A stretch of 52,402 nt of DNA from an uncultured Bacteroidales bacterium (GTDB taxonomy: Bacteria > Bacteroidota > Bacteroidia > Bacteroidales > Muribaculaceae), in NCBI GenBank assembly GCA_902792435.1, contig CADAZN010000016.1, positions 1-52,402 of the forward strand. Direction: 5' to 3'. The notes beneath the pieces are model-generated. The model was not told the DNA's origin and did not search any database. It worked only from the letters and a program-made list of their open reading frames with translations. How positions within the stretch are numbered: the stretch's first letter is position 1; each line of letters begins with the position of its first letter. Positions 4,012 to 14,377 of this stretch are shown here, in pieces. Both the position numbers and the translations under genes were made by a program.

Positions 4012-4665
4012 TCAATTGGTCTGAGTATCCTTTTGCTCGGTGGCAGGCGCTACGTTGCCATCCACCTCGGGCTTGCCTGGTGCAACAGGAGCATGGTCGG
4101 CATTATATCGTGCATTGAGACCCTCGGCCACCTGGTCGGTAATATTCCACTTGGGATTGATGAACATAGCAGCCTCCTTGCGCAAGATGGCATCGTAGTC
4201 ATTCTTTACAGCAAAGTCGGCAAGGAAGAAGTCAATCTCAGTAGCGAGCTTCATCTGCTCGCTGTTGAGCTGCTGGTCCATCTTACTCTTCATTGCTTCC
4301 ATATCCTTCTGTGCGTTCTCCTGCATCTGCTCAAGCTTCTTTTGATCGGCAGCAAGTTTCTTTTGGTCGGTCTCAAAAGCCTTTTGAGTTTTATACTGTC
4401 CGTTCTTGTACTTAGTCTCGACTTGCTTATAGAACGTCTCTATCTGCTTTCCGAACGTCTCAATTTGGTTGCGTTTTTTCTGAAACGCCTCTTGATACTC
4501 GTTTTGTAGTTTGTTCTGAAGCTGCACATATTGTTGAGCTACAATATACTGCTTGTACAACTCGTTTTCATCCACATACCTAACGTTAAAAGCCTTGTTG
4601 CTCACATCTTGCGCCGACACGCTCATAGCCAGTAGAGCAAAAGCCACAAAAAATAATTTTTTCAT
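4012..4665 (-). CDS. OmpH/Skp-family periplasmic chaperone-like protein
   Basis: 217 residues with signal peptide MKKLFFVAFALLAMSVSA. A long charged coiled-coil of Lys, Gln and Glu (about 45-140) is followed by a conserved tail (DAILRKEAAMFINPKWNITDQV). This is the layout of Skp, which holds unfolded outer-membrane proteins in the periplasm. The C-terminal tail (PVAPGKPEVDGNVAPATEQ) is low-complexity and longer than in classical Skp. As the first gene of a minus-strand cluster rich in barrel proteins, a chaperone role fits, though sequence alone cannot show that it serves these particular barrels. Confidence 0.85.
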   Translation of the reverse strand: MKKLFFVAFALLAMSVSAQDVSNKAFNVRYVDENELYKQYIVAQQYVQLQNKLQNEYQEAFQKKRNQIETFGKQIETFYKQVETKYKNGQYKTQKAFETDQKKLAADQKKLEQMQENAQKDMEAMKSKMDQQLNSEQMKLATEIDFFLADFAVKNDYDAILRKEAAMFINPKWNITDQVAEGLNARYNADHAPVAPGKPEVDGNVAPATEQKDTQTN

Positions 4666-4821
4666 TTCCTATCAATTATAATTATTATACTAATATTCCA
4701 TTTTAAATAAAAAAAGCGCACAAATATCGTCAAAATTAATGATTTATGCAATATTTTTCCCTGATTTTCTCGTTTTCATACCCATCAACCGCATTCACAC
4801 GCCTTAAAAAAACGCCACGCA

Positions 4822-6204
4822 TTATTCCACGGGTTTCCACAAAAAGAGCTTGTCGCTGGGGCGAATTTTCTCATCGGTCTTGATAGAGAATCGCTCACCT
4901 TTAACGGTTTTCTCAACAGGCTTGAGGTCGACACGAATCTCCTCTATTGTCATTGGCAATGCACCAGTGGTGGGGCCAGTGATTATTATCTCGTCGCCCA
5001 CATGAAGTTCGCCTGCCTCCATCAAGAACTCGGCGACACCAATCTTGGAGAAATAGCGTATGCCCTTGGCAGCATAGACTTTGACATGCGTTGCGCTAGA
5101 GCCATATTTTGAAGTCCATTCACCAAGCCTCTGCCCTAGATAGTAGCCATCCCAGAACCCACGGTTGAAAACGCGCGCCAAACGCTCATTCCACTGCTCA
5201 ATGCGCTCGTCGCAATAGGTGCCATCGACTATGGCGTTGAGAGCCTCGTTATAGCAGCTGGCAACGGTGCGCACATATTCAGGGCCTCTCGCCCTACCTT
5301 CAATCTTGAACACCCTCACGCCAGCATCCACCATTTTGTTAAGGAAATGGATGGTTTTGAGGTCTTTGGGTGACATGATGTACTTGTTGTCGATTGTGAG
5401 TTCGTCGCCAGTGTCACGGTCGGTGACCACATAGCTGCGGCGGCAAATTTGACGGCACGCACCGCGGTTGGCGCTCGAATTGGCCTCGTGGAGACTCATA
5501 TAGCACTTGCCGCTCACCGCCATGCACAATGCTCCGTGACAAAACATCTCGAGGCGCACTGGCTCGCCATGAGGGCCTGTGATGCCCCTCTCGGTAATTG
5601 TTTCATGAATCTTTGCCACCTGATCAAGGTTGAGCTCACGCGCGAGCACCATCACGTCGGCATATTGTGCATAGTACTGCACAGCCTCGCTGTTGCTCAC
5701 GTTAACTTGTGTGGAAATGTGCACCTCCACTCCAATGCTGCGAGCATAGAGAATTGTTGCCATGTCGCTGGCAATAATGGCGCTTATGTGCGCTTCGCGT
5801 GCAGCGTCGACGATGCGGTGCATATAGTCGATGTCCTCATCATAGATGATAGTGTTGACAGTGAGGTAGGTCTTTATGCCACGTTCAGAGCACCACTGCG
5901 CTATGGAATGAAGATCGTCAATCGAGAAGTTAACACTCGACTTACTGCGCATGTTCAAGTTCTCGATACCAAAATAAATGGCATCGGCGCCACCCTGCTG
6001 CGCTGCTACCAGCGACTCCCACGATCCCACAGGGGCCATGAGCTCAAAATCGCTTCTTTCGTTTATCGTTGGTCGTTTATCGTTTATAGAAGTATGTTGT
6101 GAAATCATAATTTCGTTTATCGTTGGTCGTTTATCGTTTATAGAAGTATGTTGTGAGATTATTGGCCCTGCAATCAATTTCATTAATGTAAATTTTGAGG
6201 GCAC
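4822..6204 (-). CDS. U32 peptidase family protein (RlhA/TrhP-like RNA hydroxylation type) with a repeat-derived N-terminus
   Basis: The U32 signature is clear: EMFCHGALCMAVSGKCYMS followed by RGACRQICRR, giving the conserved cysteines thought to bind an iron-sulphur cluster. Family members RlhA and TrhP hydroxylate a pyrimidine in 23S rRNA or tRNA; some relatives were called collagenases. The family core begins at FELMAPVGSWESL. Upstream the frame reads through a 54-bp tandem repeat giving SQHTSINDKRPTINE twice (about residues 17-31 and 35-49). Candidate starts are 6204, 6183, 6108 and 6039. I give the longest frame, but 6108 or 6039 is at least as likely. The gene lies 3 bp after the four-helix-bundle gene. 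Function is confident; the N-terminus is not. Confidence 0.85.
   Translation of the reverse strand: MPSKFTLMKLIAGPIISQHTSINDKRPTINEIMISQHTSINDKRPTINERSDFELMAPVGSWESLVAAQQGGADAIYFGIENLNMRSKSSVNFSIDDLHSIAQWCSERGIKTYLTVNTIIYDEDIDYMHRIVDAAREAHISAIIASDMATILYARSIGVEVHISTQVNVSNSEAVQYYAQYADVMVLARELNLDQVAKIHETITERGITGPHGEPVRLEMFCHGALCMAVSGKCYMSLHEANSSANRGACRQICRRSYVVTDRDTGDELTIDNKYIMSPKDLKTIHFLNKMVDAGVRVFKIEGRARGPEYVRTVASCYNEALNAIVDGTYCDERIEQWNERLARVFNRGFWDGYYLGQRLGEWTSKYGSSATHVKVYAAKGIRYFSKIGVAEFLMEAGELHVGDEIIITGPTTGALPMTIEEIRVDLKPVEKTVKGERFSIKTDEKIRPSDKLFLWKPVE
6057..6158 (-). repeat. 54-bp tandem duplication built from TTTATCGT-type words
   Basis: Two copies start at 6057 and 6111; the first 47 nt are identical (TTTCGTTTATCGTTGG at each start). 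Each copy itself contains repeats of the word cgtttatcgtt. Because the period is 54 bp the U32 reading frame is kept through both copies. The same words, in the opposite orientation, lie at 6740-6770 on the other side of the four-helix-bundle gene. Confidence 0.95.
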
Positions 6205-6207
6205 ACT

Positions 6208-6597
6208 TTATTCTTTATCATTATTAATCTTTCTGTTCAGCATTGTCCGACGATAGCCGCTTAACATCATTCCGATACGCAAAGCCTGAGATTTAAAATC
6301 CGACAATGTATTGTCATCAACATAACCAGCTCTATTTGCAATTATCAACTGGCAAACAACCTCAGTTAGAGAGCCCATTGCTATTTCATTGAAATGCAAT
6401 TTCTCTTTTATTGAAAAGCGGCTTGTACCTTCTGCTATATTAGAAGGTACAGAAATGGCGGCTCGTCTAATTTGTGATGTCAATGCATATCTTTCGCCGT
6501 CGGGGAACTCTTTAAGCAATTCATAGATTTCGGAAACAAAATCCATTGACAATTTCCACATGTCTAACTGCTCAAATGAAAAGAGTGCAAAATCCAT
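6208..6597 (-). CDS. Four-helix-bundle protein, 23S rRNA intervening-sequence protein (IVP/S23) family
   Basis: 129 residues with the hallmark of the family: TSQIRRAAISVPSNIAEG (about 42-59) inside an all-helical protein, followed by EKLHFNEIAMGSLTEV and a C-terminal basic helix. Relatives are encoded within 23S rRNA intervening sequences of spirochaetes and as free-standing genes in Bacteroidetes; the fold also resembles Avd of diversity-generating retroelements. The biochemical role is unknown, with RNA or DNA binding suspected. The gene is visibly AT-richer than its neighbours and lies between inverted clusters of one short repeat, which suggests it arrived as a cassette. No reverse transcriptase is present in the window. 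Confidence 0.85.
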   Translation of the reverse strand: MDFALFSFEQLDMWKLSMDFVSEIYELLKEFPDGERYALTSQIRRAAISVPSNIAEGTSRFSIKEKLHFNEIAMGSLTEVVCQLIIANRAGYVDDNTLSDFKSQALRIGMMLSGYRRTMLNRKINNDKE

Positions 6598-6666
6598 TTA
6601 TTTAATGCCTAATTAATTAAAGCGTCTTTACGAATTTGAATCTAAACACCCAAACGCATTGCGTAT

Positions 6667-6701
6667 TATGGTTTGCTGTTGACGTATAACAACAAACCAT
6701 A
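6667..6701. repeat. 14-bp inverted repeat (hairpin) upstream of the four-helix-bundle gene
   Basis: tatggtttgctgtt (6667-6680) is complementary to aacaacaaaccata (6688-6701) except at one position that would be a G-U pair in the minus-strand transcript; the loop is gacgtat. No clear T-run follows on either strand, so it may be a 5' leader hairpin, an operator or an element end rather than a terminator. Confidence 0.75.
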
Positions 6702-6739
6702 AACAAAACTTTTCAACATTTTGGTTTACCACTTCCTTC

Positions 6740-6770
6740 CATAAACGATAAACCATAAACGATAAACGGT
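6740..6770 (+). repeat. Short repeat cluster (AAACGATAAACC words), inverted mate of the 6057-6158 repeat
   Basis: Reads cataaacgataaacc followed by another cataaacgataaac. Its reverse complement aligns with the repeat at 6111-6143 apart from a few mismatches in the middle. Together they form imperfect inverted repeats around the four-helix-bundle gene. It ends 1 bp before the stop codon of the downstream nuclease gene. Confidence 0.85.
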
Positions 6771-6771
6771 A

Positions 6772-7899
6772 TTATTCGACTTCTTTTACAAGGAAAATTT
6801 CGGTTGGGAAGTGGTCACTGTAACCGTTGAGGAAGACGCCAGAGCTGTAGGTACGCAGTGGATAACCCTTGCGGTCGCCCTCCTGTGTCTTCAGGAAGTC
6901 GCGGTTTAGTGCCTCGGCCCTCACAAAAGTGAGTTGCGGCTTGTCTTTTCCCTCACGATACTTAGTGAAGAAACTGCTACACATGATTTGGTCGAAGAGA
7001 TTCCATTGTCCCTTATAGGCCAGTGTGCCAACGCCACTAGCAAGGATTTTCCAGAATGGATTGTACATTTCACCAGGAGTTACAACGTCCTCAATGTTGC
7101 GCTTTCCACCTACCGACTCAGCACAGGCCTTGTCCATTGGGTCGTCGTTAAGGTCGCCCATGAAGATGATGCCAATGTGGTCGCCGTGAACGTTGACAAG
7201 AGAGTCGATGGTGCGACGGCACATGTAGCCAGCAGCCTCACGCTTGGGGCTCGAAGCCTCTTGACCTCCCAAACGAGATGGCCAGTGGTTAACAATCACT
7301 GCCACGGTGTCGCCTGCAAGCAGACCAACAACGCAAATCTGGTCACGGGTTTTGAAGTTCTCGTTCCACTCATACTCGGCCTTGCGACCTGGGTCGGCTG
7401 CAGCAGCAGCTCTTTCAAAATCAATTTCACTCAAACGCTGGTTAGTAACGTTGAGAACACGGAAGAAACGTGGGTTATATAGCACTCCAACATCAACACC
7501 ACGACGGTCGGGGCTGTCGTGATAAGGAGCAATCTGCAAACGCCAGTCACGAATTTGAGGGTCACGAACTAGGTCTTTCAGCACGGTCTCGTTCTCAATC
7601 TCACTCACACCAATAATAGCTGGTCCATAAGGAGTGTTATCGGTCTTCATCTGAGCAAAGGCATAAGCCATTCTATCGATTTTAGACCAATATTTGCGGC
7701 CGTCCCACTGACGAGCGCCATTGGGCGAGAACTCCAAGTCGTAGGTGCCATTGGAGTTGATGGTGTCGAACAAGTTCTCAAGGTTGTAGAACATCACGCC
7801 ATACATCTTATAACGCTTGCTTTGCTGCACGTCGTTCTGTGCATTAATCGCTGGTACCAAAACCATTGCCATCAGAGCGGCTAACAATAATTTCTTCAT
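6772..7899 (-). CDS. Secreted endonuclease/exonuclease/phosphatase (EEP) family protein
   Basis: 375 residues from the internal Met at 7899, chosen because it begins a proper signal peptide (MKKLLLAALMAMVLVPAINA); the frame extends 11 codons further upstream without one. EEP active-site motifs are ordered as expected: MFYNLENLFDT near the N-terminus (metal Asn), GVSEIEN (metal Glu), VNHWPSR, MGDLNDDP (Asp/Asn) and YSDHFP (catalytic Asp-His). The family cleaves DNA, RNA or phospho-ester headgroups using Mg2+. Export and proximity to two NUC1 nucleases favour a periplasmic or extracellular nuclease, but a phosphatase activity cannot be excluded. Confidence 0.85.
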   Translation of the reverse strand: MKKLLLAALMAMVLVPAINAQNDVQQSKRYKMYGVMFYNLENLFDTINSNGTYDLEFSPNGARQWDGRKYWSKIDRMAYAFAQMKTDNTPYGPAIIGVSEIENETVLKDLVRDPQIRDWRLQIAPYHDSPDRRGVDVGVLYNPRFFRVLNVTNQRLSEIDFERAAAAADPGRKAEYEWNENFKTRDQICVVGLLAGDTVAVIVNHWPSRLGGQEASSPKREAAGYMCRRTIDSLVNVHGDHIGIIFMGDLNDDPMDKACAESVGGKRNIEDVVTPGEMYNPFWKILASGVGTLAYKGQWNLFDQIMCSSFFTKYREGKDKPQLTFVRAEALNRDFLKTQEGDRKGYPLRTYSSGVFLNGYSDHFPTEIFLVKEVE

Positions 7900-8010
7900 A
7901 GATTTATTTGTTTTATGTTTATATTCCGGCAAAAAACTAATTAATTTCCAAAAATACTACTTTTTCTTGAAACGACACACATTTTGCGCCAAAAATATTG
8001 AAAAAAAAAT

Positions 8011-8047
8011 CAAGGGCGACTCACTAACAATGTGTGAATCGCCCTTG
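8011..8047 (-). terminator. Rho-independent terminator after the NUC1 gene
   Basis: caagggcga (8011-8019) pairs with tcgcccttg (8039-8047). On the minus strand the stem is followed by a run of nine T, giving a strong terminator 27 bp after the stop codon at 8074. Confidence 0.85.
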
Positions 8048-8073
8048 TATATAACTCATTAGAATTAGTAAAA

Positions 8074-9948
8074 CTAATTGCTGCTGAAGTCCCAATAGGT
8101 TGCCGTGGCTTCGACTGTAGCCTCGATGTCATCGGGGAGGTTGCAGAAGAAGTCGATGCCCGTCCTCCGCTCCAGCTCGTCGATTGAAATCTTGTTGCTG
8201 ATTACTGTGGCTGCACTAGGATTGTTGCCGTTCAGATGCTCGGTCCACAGGGCAAACGCCTTGTAGGAATTGGCCGATTTGTCGTAATACAAGAACGCCA
8301 TGTAGAAGTACTTGGGCACTACCAGAGTGTGTCCTGCACCATCGGTTGTGGTGGTGATAATACCAGTGCTCGACGTGTTGTTGAGAGTGACATTTTCGAT
8401 TGTCGCGGCTTTCACCACATAGAGGGTGTCGGTGTTGTTGGTAGGTTGCCATTTAGTCCTTACATAGCCTTCAAGCGTAGCCCACACGCCACCATTATGA
8501 TTTTGGTATTGTGGTTGCATGTTGGTCATGAAGAACGTCTGCTTGTTTTGATCTATTGAAGCTAGACGGTCGGCACTTGGGCACAGGTGACCACGGGAAT
8601 ATGTGCTGCTTTGAGTATAAGAGCTGGAAGCTGAGACTGTCACAACTGGGTCTGCCTTGAAGTCATCGTGTCGTGTTGTATTCGTTGCATTGTTCTTTGC
8701 GCACATGGTGTAGCAGGTCCAGCGGTTGGCAATCTTGTTGTTGTCCCATTCAACTGAGTAGGTTATGCCGTAGGTGCTCACAGCTTTCACCACACGCTGG
8801 TTGCCGCTGGCGGTGTTGATGTGCGGGTACTCGAGGCGCCATGCGTAGTCATCAGTACTCTGGTTGGTGAATGTCGGGTCGCCCTTCGACAGTGGAATTC
8901 CACTGCCCTCGATGTTCCAGTTAGCGTTCACGTTGTTGTTTGCATCAGAGCTGATGTTATAGGTCGCTGTAACCACTGCACTCGAAACACCATCCTTGAC
9001 TGCGATGGCCTTGATGGTCATATTCCTGCTCACTGGTATAGGAGTAGAGTAAGCTGTGGAGTGACCAGTTGGGATGCTACCATCGGTGGTGTAATATATT
9101 GTAGCTCCGCTCGTTGTTGTGCTGATAGTCACATTCTGCGCCGAGGTGTAAGTGCCACCAGCAGGCGAGAACGTGGGCGCCGCAACAACGCTTGCCGCAC
9201 TGCCATCGTCCTCGACATAGAGGAAGATTGGCTGCATCGTATTTTTATAGCAAGCAAAACGTTCTTGACCAGAATTCTTATTGTATCGAATATAATACTC
9301 ATCATCAGTAACATTTTGAATAACAGCATTATAACCATCTTCATTTATCGTTATTTTCCAAGTATTGTGTTCTGCACCTGCTGACAGTGTATTAGCAGAA
9401 CCTGAATGACCTAACAAGGCACCATCTAATGATAGTGTCCATGCGTCAGTACTGCCACCTAGGGTCAAAATCTTAACAGCTGTACCTTCAGTCAATTGTA
9501 TAACTCCATTATCATAAGCGAAATTGTCGATTCCTGTTATAGAGAGTCCATATTTATTACCTCCATCAATTGCTCCCATCACTGCTGGAGTTCCTTCATA
9601 AATAAGGATATATCTCTTGCCTGCAACAAGCTGAGAGGCACTTGTCACGCGTGTGAAGATGTTGCTGGAAACTACTGGCTGGGCGTCCTCTATCACGTCG
9701 GTGATTTGAGAGTAAAGGTAATCGACGCTGGAGGTTTGGCCCTTGAGGTAGATTTTCATACCAATGGCTCCTGAGTCGCCAAATTTTCCACCCACGAAGC
9801 GCACGCTGTCCATATTGGAAGCAGCATATGTCACGGTATTTCCGTTTTTCAAAGTTATTGTCATCGACACTGGAGTGTTGTCGATAGCAGCCATTGCGTT
9901 GGCTATTGTCATCAAGCCCAAGAGGGCAACAAATAATATCTTCTTCAT
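8074..9948 (-). CDS. Secreted DNA/RNA non-specific endonuclease (NUC1) with chitobiase-type C-terminal domain
   Basis: 624 residues with signal peptide MKKILFVALLGLMTIANAMA. After an N-terminal strand-rich region, a chitobiase/hexosaminidase C-terminal type module lies near 255-330 (PTFSPAGGTYTS, TIYYTTDGSIPT, MTIKAIAVKDG). The NUC1 nuclease domain follows, with the catalytic motif YSRGHLCPSADR (about 447-458; RGH replaces the common DRGH) and the metal-site region NMQPQYQNHNGGVWATLE (about 474-491). The last 50 residues (DELERRTGIDFFCNLPDD) are nearly the same in the 12293 gene, so the two are paralogues. Such enzymes degrade extracellular DNA and RNA. The gene shares the strand of the 9968 gene with a 19-bp gap. 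Confidence 0.88.
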   Translation of the reverse strand: MKKILFVALLGLMTIANAMAAIDNTPVSMTITLKNGNTVTYAASNMDSVRFVGGKFGDSGAIGMKIYLKGQTSSVDYLYSQITDVIEDAQPVVSSNIFTRVTSASQLVAGKRYILIYEGTPAVMGAIDGGNKYGLSITGIDNFAYDNGVIQLTEGTAVKILTLGGSTDAWTLSLDGALLGHSGSANTLSAGAEHNTWKITINEDGYNAVIQNVTDDEYYIRYNKNSGQERFACYKNTMQPIFLYVEDDGSAASVVAAPTFSPAGGTYTSAQNVTISTTTSGATIYYTTDGSIPTGHSTAYSTPIPVSRNMTIKAIAVKDGVSSAVVTATYNISSDANNNVNANWNIEGSGIPLSKGDPTFTNQSTDDYAWRLEYPHINTASGNQRVVKAVSTYGITYSVEWDNNKIANRWTCYTMCAKNNATNTTRHDDFKADPVVTVSASSSYTQSSTYSRGHLCPSADRLASIDQNKQTFFMTNMQPQYQNHNGGVWATLEGYVRTKWQPTNNTDTLYVVKAATIENVTLNNTSSTGIITTTTDGAGHTLVVPKYFYMAFLYYDKSANSYKAFALWTEHLNGNNPSAATVISNKISIDELERRTGIDFFCNLPDDIEATVEATATYWDFSSN

Positions 9949-12292: not shown

Positions 12293-14377
12293 ATGAATAA
12301 ACGAATTTACTTACTATCAATGTTGGCGTGCCTTTCGCTGGCGGCATCGGCAGTCACCAAGACAGCCGTCTTCGACTTCAGCTCGCCCGAGGCACTCGCA
12401 CAACTGGGTCTGCCCACGCCCACAAGCAGCACCCCAACCTATCTGCAGAACAACATCACCGTGGGTGATATCACATTCATCCCTGGCAGCAGCTCTCCCC
12501 GCTCCACCTACTATCAAAATCAATACACATTTTACACTACTAGCGGCAACACATTCTCGTTTCAAGCTGCCAGTGGAGCAACCATCAAGCGTGTTGACTT
12601 CGACGGTTTCTACGCTCAGCAGCGCTTCACAGCATCTCCCGCTGGCTTCGATTCGGGCAACACTTACTGGAGTGGCTCCACCAGCAAGGTCACCTTCACC
12701 GGCACTGGCGGCAACTCCTTGTTCTCGATGACAGTTACCTATGAGATGGAAGAATCCAACTACGACCCATGCGACGTGAACCGTGACGGAGCAGTTACAG
12801 CAGCCGATATCACTGCATTATACAATTACCTGCTCAACAACGAAATGACCTACTACAACAGCTGTGACGTTAATGGCGACGGCAACATCACCAGCTCAGA
12901 CGTCACTGCGGTTTACAACTACCTCCTCAATGGTGGTAGCACTGTGCCAATGCCAACCTTCAGTCATCTCTCAGGAACGGTGTTTAACACTCCAACTGAA
13001 GTTACTGTAACAGGTCCTGCCAATAGCCGCGTATATATCACTACCGATGGCAGCACACCAAGCACTACAAACTACCAGGACAACGCTTACGGCTCAATCA
13101 ATGTGATGGTAGGCTTCAATATGACCCTCAAGGCCATTGCCGTAGTCGACGGTCAGTCAAGTGCTGTGGCAACAGCGGTGTATTCACTCGTTGAAGTGCC
13201 AGGCCCCACCTTCAACCCACCTTCGGGCACAGTGTTCCAAGGCAATGGTTCGGTGACAATCACTGGCCCTTACGGAAGTATGATTTACTTCACACTCGAC
13301 GGCACAACGCCAACCACAAGCCACTACTACACTCACGGCAACTCGCCCTTCACCATCGAGGAACTCGAAGTTGGCACTACAACCATTAAGGCTATCGCTG
13401 TCCTTAACGGAGTGGCAAGTCCTGTAATGACTGCCGTTTACACCGTGGAAGAAGTTACCGACAACAATGTCAATGCCAACTGGAAAGAGACGGCCTTCAA
13501 TATTCCGGAATCAGGTCCCAAACCCACAACTTCGAGTGCCACCTACAATCAGGCTTGGCGCATTGAATATCCCCACATCGCTACAAGCTCCAACTACATG
13601 GTTGTGGTTAAGGCAACGTCCCAATATGGCGTATCGCTCTCGCTTGAGCTTGACAAGAGTCAGCGAGCCAATCACTGGACCTGCTTCACAATGCACGCAG
13701 GCACGCCAAACAATAATGTGGGACGAACACCCTCATTCTCGGTTGACAGTAATGTGCCATCCGCTTATCAGGTTAACACGAGCGAGTACACCACCGGAAA
13801 GTACACCACCTCAGTCGTCAATCTTGACGGCAACAACATGACGATGTTTGCCCGCGGTCACATCTGCGCCAGCGAGGACCGTCAGTCGAGTAGTGAACAG
13901 AACAGCCACACTTTTGTCACCAGCAACATCCATCCACAGTATCAGGCTCACAACGCCGGCCTGTGGCAACGCATGGAGACAAAGGTGCAGAACTGGGGTT
14001 ACAGTAACAGCTTCCGCGACACCCTCTATGTGTGCAAGGGTGCAACAATTGGCGACGTTACGCTCAACGGTTCCACAACATCTGGACTCATTCCTAAATC
14101 AGAAGTGCAAAGCCTATATGGAGTCAACATCACTGGAACTCTCCCTATTCCACGCTACTGGTATATGGCAGTATTGCGACTGAAAAACGGTCAATACCAA
14201 GCTATGGCCTACTGGACTGAGCAAATCAATAGTTCGTGCAGTTCAACCACCTTGCCAAGCTGCATGATAACCATCGACGAGCTGGAGAGGAGGACAGGCA
14301 TCGACTTCTTCTGCAACCTCCCCGACGACATCGAGGAAGCGGTGGAATCTACGCTAAACACCAGCATCTGGCAGTAG
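12293..14377 (+). CDS. Secreted NUC1 endonuclease with dockerin and two chitobiase-type domains
   Basis: 694 residues with signal peptide MNKRIYLLSMLACLSLAASA. The order of parts is: an N-terminal strand-rich domain, then a dockerin type I pair of calcium loops (CDVNRDGAVTAADITALYNY and CDVNGDGNITSSDVTAVYNY, about 159-216). Two chitobiase C-terminal type modules follow (about 220-385; VYITTDGSTPS and IYFTLDGTTPT). The NUC1 domain comes last, with FARGHICASEDRQ (about 518-530) and NIHPQYQAHNAGLWQRME. The C-terminus mirrors that of the 8074 paralogue. A dockerin on a nuclease hints at docking to a cohesin-bearing partner, though dockerins in Bacteroidetes may have other uses. Confidence 0.88.
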   Translation: MNKRIYLLSMLACLSLAASAVTKTAVFDFSSPEALAQLGLPTPTSSTPTYLQNNITVGDITFIPGSSSPRSTYYQNQYTFYTTSGNTFSFQAASGATIKRVDFDGFYAQQRFTASPAGFDSGNTYWSGSTSKVTFTGTGGNSLFSMTVTYEMEESNYDPCDVNRDGAVTAADITALYNYLLNNEMTYYNSCDVNGDGNITSSDVTAVYNYLLNGGSTVPMPTFSHLSGTVFNTPTEVTVTGPANSRVYITTDGSTPSTTNYQDNAYGSINVMVGFNMTLKAIAVVDGQSSAVATAVYSLVEVPGPTFNPPSGTVFQGNGSVTITGPYGSMIYFTLDGTTPTTSHYYTHGNSPFTIEELEVGTTTIKAIAVLNGVASPVMTAVYTVEEVTDNNVNANWKETAFNIPESGPKPTTSSATYNQAWRIEYPHIATSSNYMVVVKATSQYGVSLSLELDKSQRANHWTCFTMHAGTPNNNVGRTPSFSVDSNVPSAYQVNTSEYTTGKYTTSVVNLDGNNMTMFARGHICASEDRQSSSEQNSHTFVTSNIHPQYQAHNAGLWQRMETKVQNWGYSNSFRDTLYVCKGATIGDVTLNGSTTSGLIPKSEVQSLYGVNITGTLPIPRYWYMAVLRLKNGQYQAMAYWTEQINSSCSSTTLPSCMITIDELERRTGIDFFCNLPDDIEEAVESTLNTSIWQ

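What the first reader, a model, noticed from the sequence alone, without database searches (positions are those of the whole stretch)
6057..6770. Four-helix-bundle gene bracketed by inverted clusters of one short repeat: possible undescribed mobile cassette
The IVP/S23-type gene (6208-6597) lies between TTTATCGT-word repeats at 6057-6158 and their reverse complement at 6740-6770. Alignment of the two clusters by eye gives roughly 25 of 29 matching bases. The gene is visibly AT-richer than its neighbours and a further 14-bp hairpin sits at 6667-6701. No transposase is present. Relatives of this protein sit inside rRNA intervening sequences, so a unit moved in trans, with a helical nucleic-acid-binding protein and inverted repeat ends, is possible. 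This is inference; no mobility is shown.
Basis: partly seen in the sequence, partly recalled or inferred. Interest (0 to 1): 0.72.

Follow-up and report, generated by a model that had tools for sequence, protein, structure and literature searches.

The report
Mobile ring-protein gene between heptamer arrays
A small gene for a ring-forming helical protein sits between two mirror-image rows of a repeated seven-letter DNA word, and related units in many bacterial phyla, some present or absent between closely related plasmids, point to a widespread kind of jumping DNA with no known jumping enzyme.

Summary
The IVP/S23 gene (6208-6597, -) lies between inverted arrays of about four 7-nt words; the word gives 27 exact matches in the genome against 0 for a backward control. 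The anatomy is general: 62 of 71 IVP loci of the same bacterial family and 52 of 77 over many phyla have flanks that match each other inverted, against 12 of 1174 ordinary genes. Words differ between loci and follow the IVP protein at unrelated sites (weak in the multi-phylum subset alone). Cyanobacterial plasmids give five filled/empty site pairs (flanks 86-99%); two show a clean 5-bp duplication overlapping the upstream stop codon. IVP shows dN/dS 0.10-0.14 in five divergent pairs and runs with co-directional neighbours in 108 of 117 cases. Reverse transcriptases do not track it, Y1 transposases only weakly. Best reading: a mobile element class without a recognised recombinase, IVP being its word-specific end-binding ring (inferred), the cutting enzyme unknown. 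At the window site the insertion is old; relatives carry other words on both arms. Anatomy resembles 23S rRNA intervening sequences.

The parts
6741..6768 (-). outer array upstream of the IVP gene: CGTTTATCGTTTATGGTTTATCGTTTAT, four 7-nt units
6728..6740 (-). sub-terminal stretch GGAAGGAAGTGGT; the N-GAAG part is shared with array ends elsewhere in the genome
   Evidence: G 17, A 15, A 14, G 15 of 18 ends at the four GAAG positions
6666..6702 (.). hairpin, 15-nt arms, 7-nt loop
   Evidence: I10
6208..6597 (-). IVP/S23 four-helix-bundle gene, 129 aa
6142..6162 (+). sub-terminal stretch AGAAGTATGTTGTGAGATTAT of the inner copy
6111..6141 (+). array downstream of the IVP gene, copy 2 of the 54-bp duplication
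   Evidence: D1, I1
6057..6108 (+). array plus sub-terminal stretch, copy 1 of the 54-bp duplication, in frame with the U32 ORF
4822..6051 (-). downstream neighbour: U32 family gene (host), part used as query
6772..7932 (-). upstream neighbour: Exo_endo_phos_3 gene (host)

Best explanation
The stretch of about 6057-6771 is one copy of a widespread class of small mobile elements (insertions of 0.4-0.5 kb in the plasmid cases), here called IVP elements. Shown: one gene (IVP) between two inverted arrays, mostly of 4-5 copies of a 7-nt (sometimes 8-nt) word; words differ between lineages, match between the two arms and follow the protein; units are present or absent at otherwise closely similar sites, inserted at or near the stop/start junction of neighbouring genes, mostly in the sense direction, with a clean 5-bp target duplication in the two best-resolved cases; in the window's genome, arrays without the gene carry the same end motif. 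Inferred: IVP, whose solved relative is reported as a pentameric ring, binds the heptamer arrays of its own and of gene-less copies (about one ring per arm), brings the two ends together, and recruits an unidentified enzyme in trans that cuts and joins DNA. Also inferred: the two arms are kept alike by copying one onto the other, so the word can change while the arms still match.
For: Inverted match within loci: 62 of 71 family loci against 31 of 852 between-locus pairs; 52 of 77 multi-phylum loci against 17 of 924, 21 of 27 of those outside Bacteroidota; 9 of 10 plasmid loci against 10 of 90 between-locus pairs, some of which share an element. Ordinary genes: 2 of 285 and 10 of 889. Period 7 or 14 in 163 of the 201 flanks with a tandem run, of 296. 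Word sharing at non-syntenic sites: 25 of 133 pairs at 60-65% IVP identity, 14 of 36 at 65-75%, 3 of 3 above, against 56 of 3532 at 40-50%; permutation: 42 observed, mean 4.2, maximum 20 in 2000. Five filled/empty cases: case B (Trichormus plasmid C and Scytonema filled; Nostoc linckia, N. carneum, Microchaete empty; flanks 96-99%) duplicates GTAAT; case C (flanks 90-93%) duplicates TTCTA; the empty sites printed for B, C and E show no array. The unit of B, C and D is 78-82% identical over about 420 bp at three sites. dN/dS 0.10-0.14 in five divergent pairs. Sense orientation in 108 of 117 loci between co-directional ORFs. Shared end motif. Density of 7/8-mer arrays higher in 9 IVP+ than 8 IVP- genomes, p 0.011. 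Median 4.7 units in 164 7-mer arrays. Fold: 2gsc and 2rld, then Avd.
Against: No catalytic domain is known in IVP and no helper was found, so the chemistry is unexplained. Binding of IVP to the words is not tested. Only 2 of 5 cases give a clean 5-bp duplication, one gives 4 of 5, two are unclear, and a sixth pair (L296 against L321) gives none clear. In the multi-phylum subset the word/protein link is weak: 9 of 75 against mean 2.1, maximum 10. Two of nine IVP+ genomes show no 7/8-mer array in 80 kb each and one IVP- genome shows one in 20 kb; 6 of 74 genomes without a strong IVP hit have 10 or more ATAATGC-type matches. No recent movement is seen at the window site. The near-identical pair L300/L308 gives dN/dS 0.86 from very few changes. 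9 of 71 and 25 of 77 loci do not reach the inverted score.
Confidence: 0.72

Rival explanations
1. RNA-level element: the two arms pair in the transcript, the insert is cut out by RNase III like a 23S rRNA intervening sequence, and selection keeps the RNA stem; IVP protects or handles that RNA.
For: Terminal arms close the folded window RNA in both the minimum-energy and the centroid structure, z -5.4 from 20 shuffles. Sense orientation in 108 of 117. The Coxiella 23S insert has a 28-bp terminal stem and tandem heptamers upstream of its S23 ORF (PMC4990558, passages). At the U32 site relatives have other words, matching on both arms.
Against: If the sense RNA stem were selected, G.U pairs should exceed A.C mismatches between arms; the reverse is seen, 164 against 234 over 126 loci (p 0.0005), though the per-locus sign test is not significant (p 0.22). 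The 5-bp duplications point to a DNA step. Both readings can hold together.
Confidence: 0.35
2. Mobilised by a Y1 (HUH) transposase in trans, a REP/REPIN-RAYT type system with IVP as passenger or helper.
For: The only two control genes of the own-genome sample with inverted flanks look by eye like Y1/REP-type transposases. Y1_Tnp is somewhat commoner in IVP+ genomes, 32 of 45 against 37 of 74, p 0.035.
Against: 13 of 45 IVP+ genomes have no Y1 match. Y1 elements do not make target duplications (recalled). No Y1 gene is annotated within the ten plasmid units, and none lies in the window unit.
Confidence: 0.1
3. Retroelement accessory: IVP is an Avd-like partner of a reverse transcriptase acting in trans that copies heptamer arrays.
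For: Fold kinship to Avd, weak sequence kinship.
Against: The window genome (93% complete draft) has no RVT_1 match and no first-look candidate; RT presence is alike, 18 of 45 IVP+ against 31 of 74 IVP-.
Confidence: 0.05
4. IVP genes recombine into heptamer arrays that arise on their own by replication slippage; no element exists.
For: Arrays without a PF05635 hit are commoner than IVP genes, and arrays vary in copy number.
Against: The empty sites of cases B, C and E show no array, so arrays come or go with the gene. Words follow the protein. Arms are inverted, not direct (62 against 8 of 71).
Confidence: 0.05

Closest known systems
Intervening sequences (IVS) of 23S rRNA genes with an S23/IVP ORF (Coxiella, Leptospira)
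   Same: IVP-family ORF inside terminal inverted repeats; in Coxiella also tandem heptamers GACAGAT upstream of the ORF with varying copy number (PMC4990558, passages)
   Different: Those lie in rRNA; the units studied here lie between protein genes, have words matching on both arms, and have empty sites, two with target duplications. That paper takes the Coxiella ORF to be expendable; here dN/dS is 0.10-0.14 in five divergent pairs. I did not analyse an rRNA insert myself
Dispersed heptamer repeats (GGGAATC in Xanthomonas, GGGGATT in Nostoc, TAACTGA in Beggiatoaceae, cyanobacteria, Bacteroidetes)
   Same: Xanthomonas arrays: most with four units, mainly intergenic, 70 and 75 inverted pairs in two genomes (PMC4692102, section 10 read); most TAACTGA arrays of one genome sit just upstream of start codons (PMC4679880, abstract and passages)
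   Different: In what I saw, neither paper names IVP/S23; the first reports that the repeats were generally not found with mobile elements (passage). Here IVPs of Rhodanobacter and Luteimonas have GGGATTC/GGGAATC words (L152, L168) and one of genome G040 has CAACTGA/TAACTGA words (L062)
REP/REPIN with RAYT transposases; MITEs
   Same: Gene-bearing and gene-less copies with the same inverted ends, intergenic (comparison recalled)
   Different: No Y1 or other transposase in the unit; tandem 7-nt arrays as ends; word differs between lineages
Avd of diversity-generating retroelements
   Same: Four-helix bundle of the same fold: 8ub7 and 4dwl at TM about 0.8, but Foldseek E 0.18-0.25
   Different: No RT found; Avd-specific models score below their cut-offs

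Membership tests
23S_rRNA_IVP / S23 protein family (PF05635, TIGR02436) | score above the curated cut-off over the full domain | tested here: met
   121.2 bits against 33.8; 116.9 against 24
23S rRNA intervening sequence | lies inside a 23S rRNA gene | tested here: not met
   no Rfam match in 4500-8100 at E<=1; neighbours are protein genes
23S rRNA intervening sequence | terminal inverted repeats closing the insert | tested here: met
23S rRNA intervening sequence | excised by RNase III | not testable with these tools
   needs RNA work
IS / autonomous transposon | encodes a transposase or recombinase | tested here: not met
   only gene in the unit is IVP
IS / transposon | target site duplication at filled against empty sites | tested here: inconclusive
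   5 bp in cases B and C, 4 of 5 in E, unclear in A and D and in the RNR pair; not testable at the window site
REPIN-RAYT | Y1 (HUH) transposase | tested here: not met
   none in the window unit; 13 of 45 IVP+ genomes lack a Y1 match
Diversity-generating retroelement | reverse transcriptase | tested here: not met
   own genome 0 RVT_1 matches
Avd / bAvd | score above the Avd cut-off | tested here: not met
   bAvd 21.3 bits against 40; NF033474 20.9 against 80

The most novel reading that the evidence does not exclude
A bacterial mobile element class with no recombinase of its own: a ring protein without known catalytic domain reads a lineage-specific 7-nt code written as arrays at the element ends and borrows a host DNA enzyme. 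It would account for much of the noted excess of heptamer repeats in bacterial genomes, and 23S rRNA intervening sequences would be copies that landed in rRNA genes.
Probability: 0.5. Interest if true: 0.95.

Novelty: categorically new. Interest (0 to 1): 0.88.

Why it matters
An excess of heptamer repeats in bacterial genomes has been noted; in the passages I read no gene is given as its cause (PMC4692102, PMC4679880), and S23/IVP proteins are said there to have no known function (PMC4990558, passage). Tying the two would give both an explanation, a natural set of protein/word pairs for studying nucleic-acid recognition, and a mobile element whose chemistry is open. It also suggests that IVP genes inside CRISPR or other operons may be inserts and not parts of those systems.

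Tried and rejected
RNA families: no Rfam match in 4500-8100 at E<=1. Phages: no match to the window IVP at E<=1e-5 in 50,697 records. RT helper: no link. Y1 helper: weak link only. One common word for all IVPs: rejected, words differ. Repeated insertion of unrelated IVP elements at the U32 site: not favoured, the five IVPs form one clade; but synonymous divergence of IVP was measurable in only one of four pairs (L207, 1.62 against 1.52 and 1.76 in the neighbours) and saturated in three (pS 0.76-0.78 against 0.62-0.68), so replacement by a related copy is not excluded. Sense-RNA stem selection by wobble excess: not supported, reverse trend. Matching of sampled arrays to the words of a genome's own IVPs: matches for 5 of 6 IVPs in G000, 2 of 3 in G096, 2 of 4 in G017, 2 of 4 in G080, while some foreign IVPs matched more arrays, so I do not use it.

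Choices and rows dropped. The 75 family loci are higher-scoring places for which DNA was fetched, not all matches; the weak long-ORF hits L007 and L008 were left out, L006 was kept. One search used 71 of 75, 77 of 80, 141 of 148 loci with an array, 139 of 148; the tree kept 106 of 123 columns and its bootstrap had not settled. The 45 strong-IVP genomes are my cut at E<=1e-12 (48 of 119 pass the curated cut-off), and the 8 genomes with ATAATGC-word IVPs were picked by eye. Thresholds (15 for inverted flanks; 14 or 16 for tandem runs) are mine; other cut-offs are printed. Own-genome neighbour ORF pairs share strand in 204 of 287, so only the 108-against-9 comparison is used. In L302 the direct match (66) exceeds the inverted one (25) because of long arrays.

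Full report
Check of the finding. The inverted clusters, the hairpin, the gene and its low GC are present as described. The word gives 27 exact matches in the own genome, at 13-14 spots, against 0 for the backward control. Most spots have no PF05635 hit: read by eye, the arrays stand in gaps between ORFs, many directly upstream of a start codon, and at three spots as inverted pairs with no large ORF between. Aligning 18 array ends shows an inner side with N-GAAG (17, 15, 14, 15 of 18) and a weaker GTGAGA further in, and by eye no conservation on the outer side; the window unit has GAAG at both ends. So arrays without the gene and the IVP unit share ends in this genome.

A general anatomy. The own genome has 8 PF05635 matches; the flanks printed show short tandem words at each, with the word differing between loci except L004 and L005, which are alike. 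In 119 genomes of the same family 48 are over the cut-off, a patchy spread. Of 71 loci with both flanks, 62 align left flank to the reverse complement of the right flank with score 15 or more; direct alignment reaches that in 8, and flanks taken from different loci in 31 of 852. Over 77 of 80 loci from many phyla it is 52, against 17 of 924, direct 9; outside Bacteroidota 21 of 27. Ordinary genes: 2 of 285 in 400 kb of the own genome, both looking by eye like Y1 transposases, and 10 of 889 in five other genomes. Of 296 flanks, 201 carry a tandem run: 125 with period 7, 38 with period 14, 30 with period 8; shuffled flanks give 1. In 164 7-mer arrays the median is 4.7 units.

Word and protein travel together. 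Between loci that share no flanking protein (E<=1e-8), word sharing rises with IVP identity: 56 of 3532 pairs at 40-50%, 24 of 402 at 55-60%, 25 of 133 at 60-65%, 14 of 36 at 65-75%, 3 of 3 above. Permuting loci gives mean 4.2 and maximum 20 against 42 observed; in the own family 32 against mean 3.3, maximum 12; in the multi-phylum set alone 9 against mean 2.1, maximum 10, which is weak. Genomes whose IVP bears an ATAATGC word (8, picked by eye) have 10 or more pattern matches in 7 of 8, the other genomes in 11 of 111; of 74 genomes without a strong IVP, 6 do too. Density of 7/8-mer arrays is higher in nine IVP+ than in eight IVP- genomes, p 0.011; two IVP+ genomes have none in 80 kb and one IVP- genome has one in 20 kb.

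Mobility. 27 plasmid records match the window IVP, most of them cyanobacterial, many annotated four helix bundle or S23 ribosomal protein. I fetched ten of those loci; 9 reach the inverted score and the tenth has 14.5. Gene neighbourhoods include cas6-IVP-cas4, cas10-IVP-cmr3, the two ribonucleotide reductase genes with IVP on the opposite strand, and a TrbI/VirB10 cluster. Related plasmids lack the insert. Case B (L300 and L308 filled; L305, L306, L307 empty; flanks 96-99%): the empty site reads AAAAAGTAATTAACAAATAAATATG; the filled one has AAAAAGTAAT before the unit and GTAATTAACAAATAAATATG after it, a 5-bp duplication GTAAT that contains the upstream stop codon. Case C (L303 and L319 against L313 and L314, flanks 90-93%): TTCTA is duplicated and overlaps a TAG stop. 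Case E (L297 against L317 and L318, flanks 92-99%): the insert lies in an overlapping stop/start TAATG and 4 of 5 bases match. Cases A and D (flanks 86-95%) are not clean, nor is the ribonucleotide reductase pair L296/L321. The units of B, C and D are 78-82% identical to one another over about 420 bp at three different sites. A shortened copy lies at site B in Nostoc C052 (L309).

The window site. The exo-U32 neighbourhood is kept in the own and in 7 of 29 other fetched loci; IVP is present in five species and absent in three, with gaps of 153, 100 and 69 bp. The five IVPs are one clade (100/91), so I take this as one old insertion. U32 is 94-97% identical to the window's, exo 85-88%, IVP 52-75%. 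The word is GTTTAT-like in three (decayed on one side in L208), TGGAAGG in L206 and GATCGGG in L209, in these two with matching reverse complement on the other arm. The arms therefore seem to change together.

The protein. dN/dS is 0.10-0.14 in five divergent pairs; three further pairs were saturated, two near-identical pairs had no amino-acid change, and L300/L308 gave 0.86 from very few changes. The model (pLDDT 95.6) is a four-helix bundle; best Foldseek matches are 2gsc (Xcc0516, five chains) and 2rld (BT_0352), then DGR Avd structures at TM about 0.8 but E 0.18 and above. PMC4990558 (passage) says that the X. campestris S23 protein is a homopentamer forming a toroid. A five-subunit ring and arrays of four to five words make a suggestive, untested match. 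The gene runs with its neighbours in 108 of 117 gaps between co-directional ORFs, so it may depend on read-through.

Mechanism. DNA-level insertion is supported by the duplications and empty sites. The enzyme is unknown: no RVT_1 match in the own genome, no RT link and a weak Y1 link over 119 genomes. An RNA stage is possible: the folded transcript is closed by the arms, but arm mismatches do not favour G.U in the sense strand, 164 against 234.

Known work. PMC4990558 (passages): Coxiella 23S insert with a 28-bp terminal stem, tandem heptamers and an S23 ORF, and the older suggestion that such inserts are or were mobile. PMC4692102 (section 10 and passages): GGGAATC arrays in Xanthomonas, most with four units, many inverted pairs, generally not found with mobile elements. 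PMC4679880 (abstract and passages): TAACTGA arrays, patchy, no transfer mechanism evident. PMC10053308 (passages): PF05635 resembles Avd. PMC11270868 (passage): IVP in rRNA inserts of CPR bacteria. PMC10910872 (passage): IVP named in a figure legend on CRISPR systems. PMC8700078 (passages): two strain-specific four helix bundle genes. In the listings of searches I saw no paper linking IVP genes to heptamer arrays outside rRNA; several searches had over 100 hits of which 10-20 were listed, only open-licence PMC papers are held, and the link may be in print elsewhere.

Noticed in passing
window 6057-6204: The 54-bp array duplication is in frame with the U32 ORF as listed, which reads through it as an N-terminal extension; the true start codon is unclear.
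   Followed up: partly
L008 (G000:C15:18731-18952), L006, L007; L210: Weaker PF05635 hits in open frames of about 205-242 aa. L008 has TCTAGA words on both sides; TCTAGA runs of period 9 occur in the own-genome sample and in the IVP-less exo-U32 gap of L210. Possibly a second, 9-nt branch of the same element type.
   Followed up: partly
L042 6450-6900, L043 11723-12539 (own genome): The only two of 285 control genes with inverted flanks; they look by eye like Y1/REP-type transposases.
   Followed up: no
L295, L302, L301 (cyanobacterial plasmids): IVP units sit inside CRISPR-Cas gene clusters (cas6-cas4, cas10-cmr3) and may be mistaken for CRISPR accessory genes.
   Followed up: partly
L208 intergenic: A second set of short words (CTGAAAA type) inside the IVP unit, as if another element had entered it.
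   Followed up: no
window 8074-9948 (-) and 12293-14377 (+): Two ORFs with a similar C-terminal part that reads by eye like a non-specific DNA/RNA endonuclease domain; not searched.
   Followed up: no
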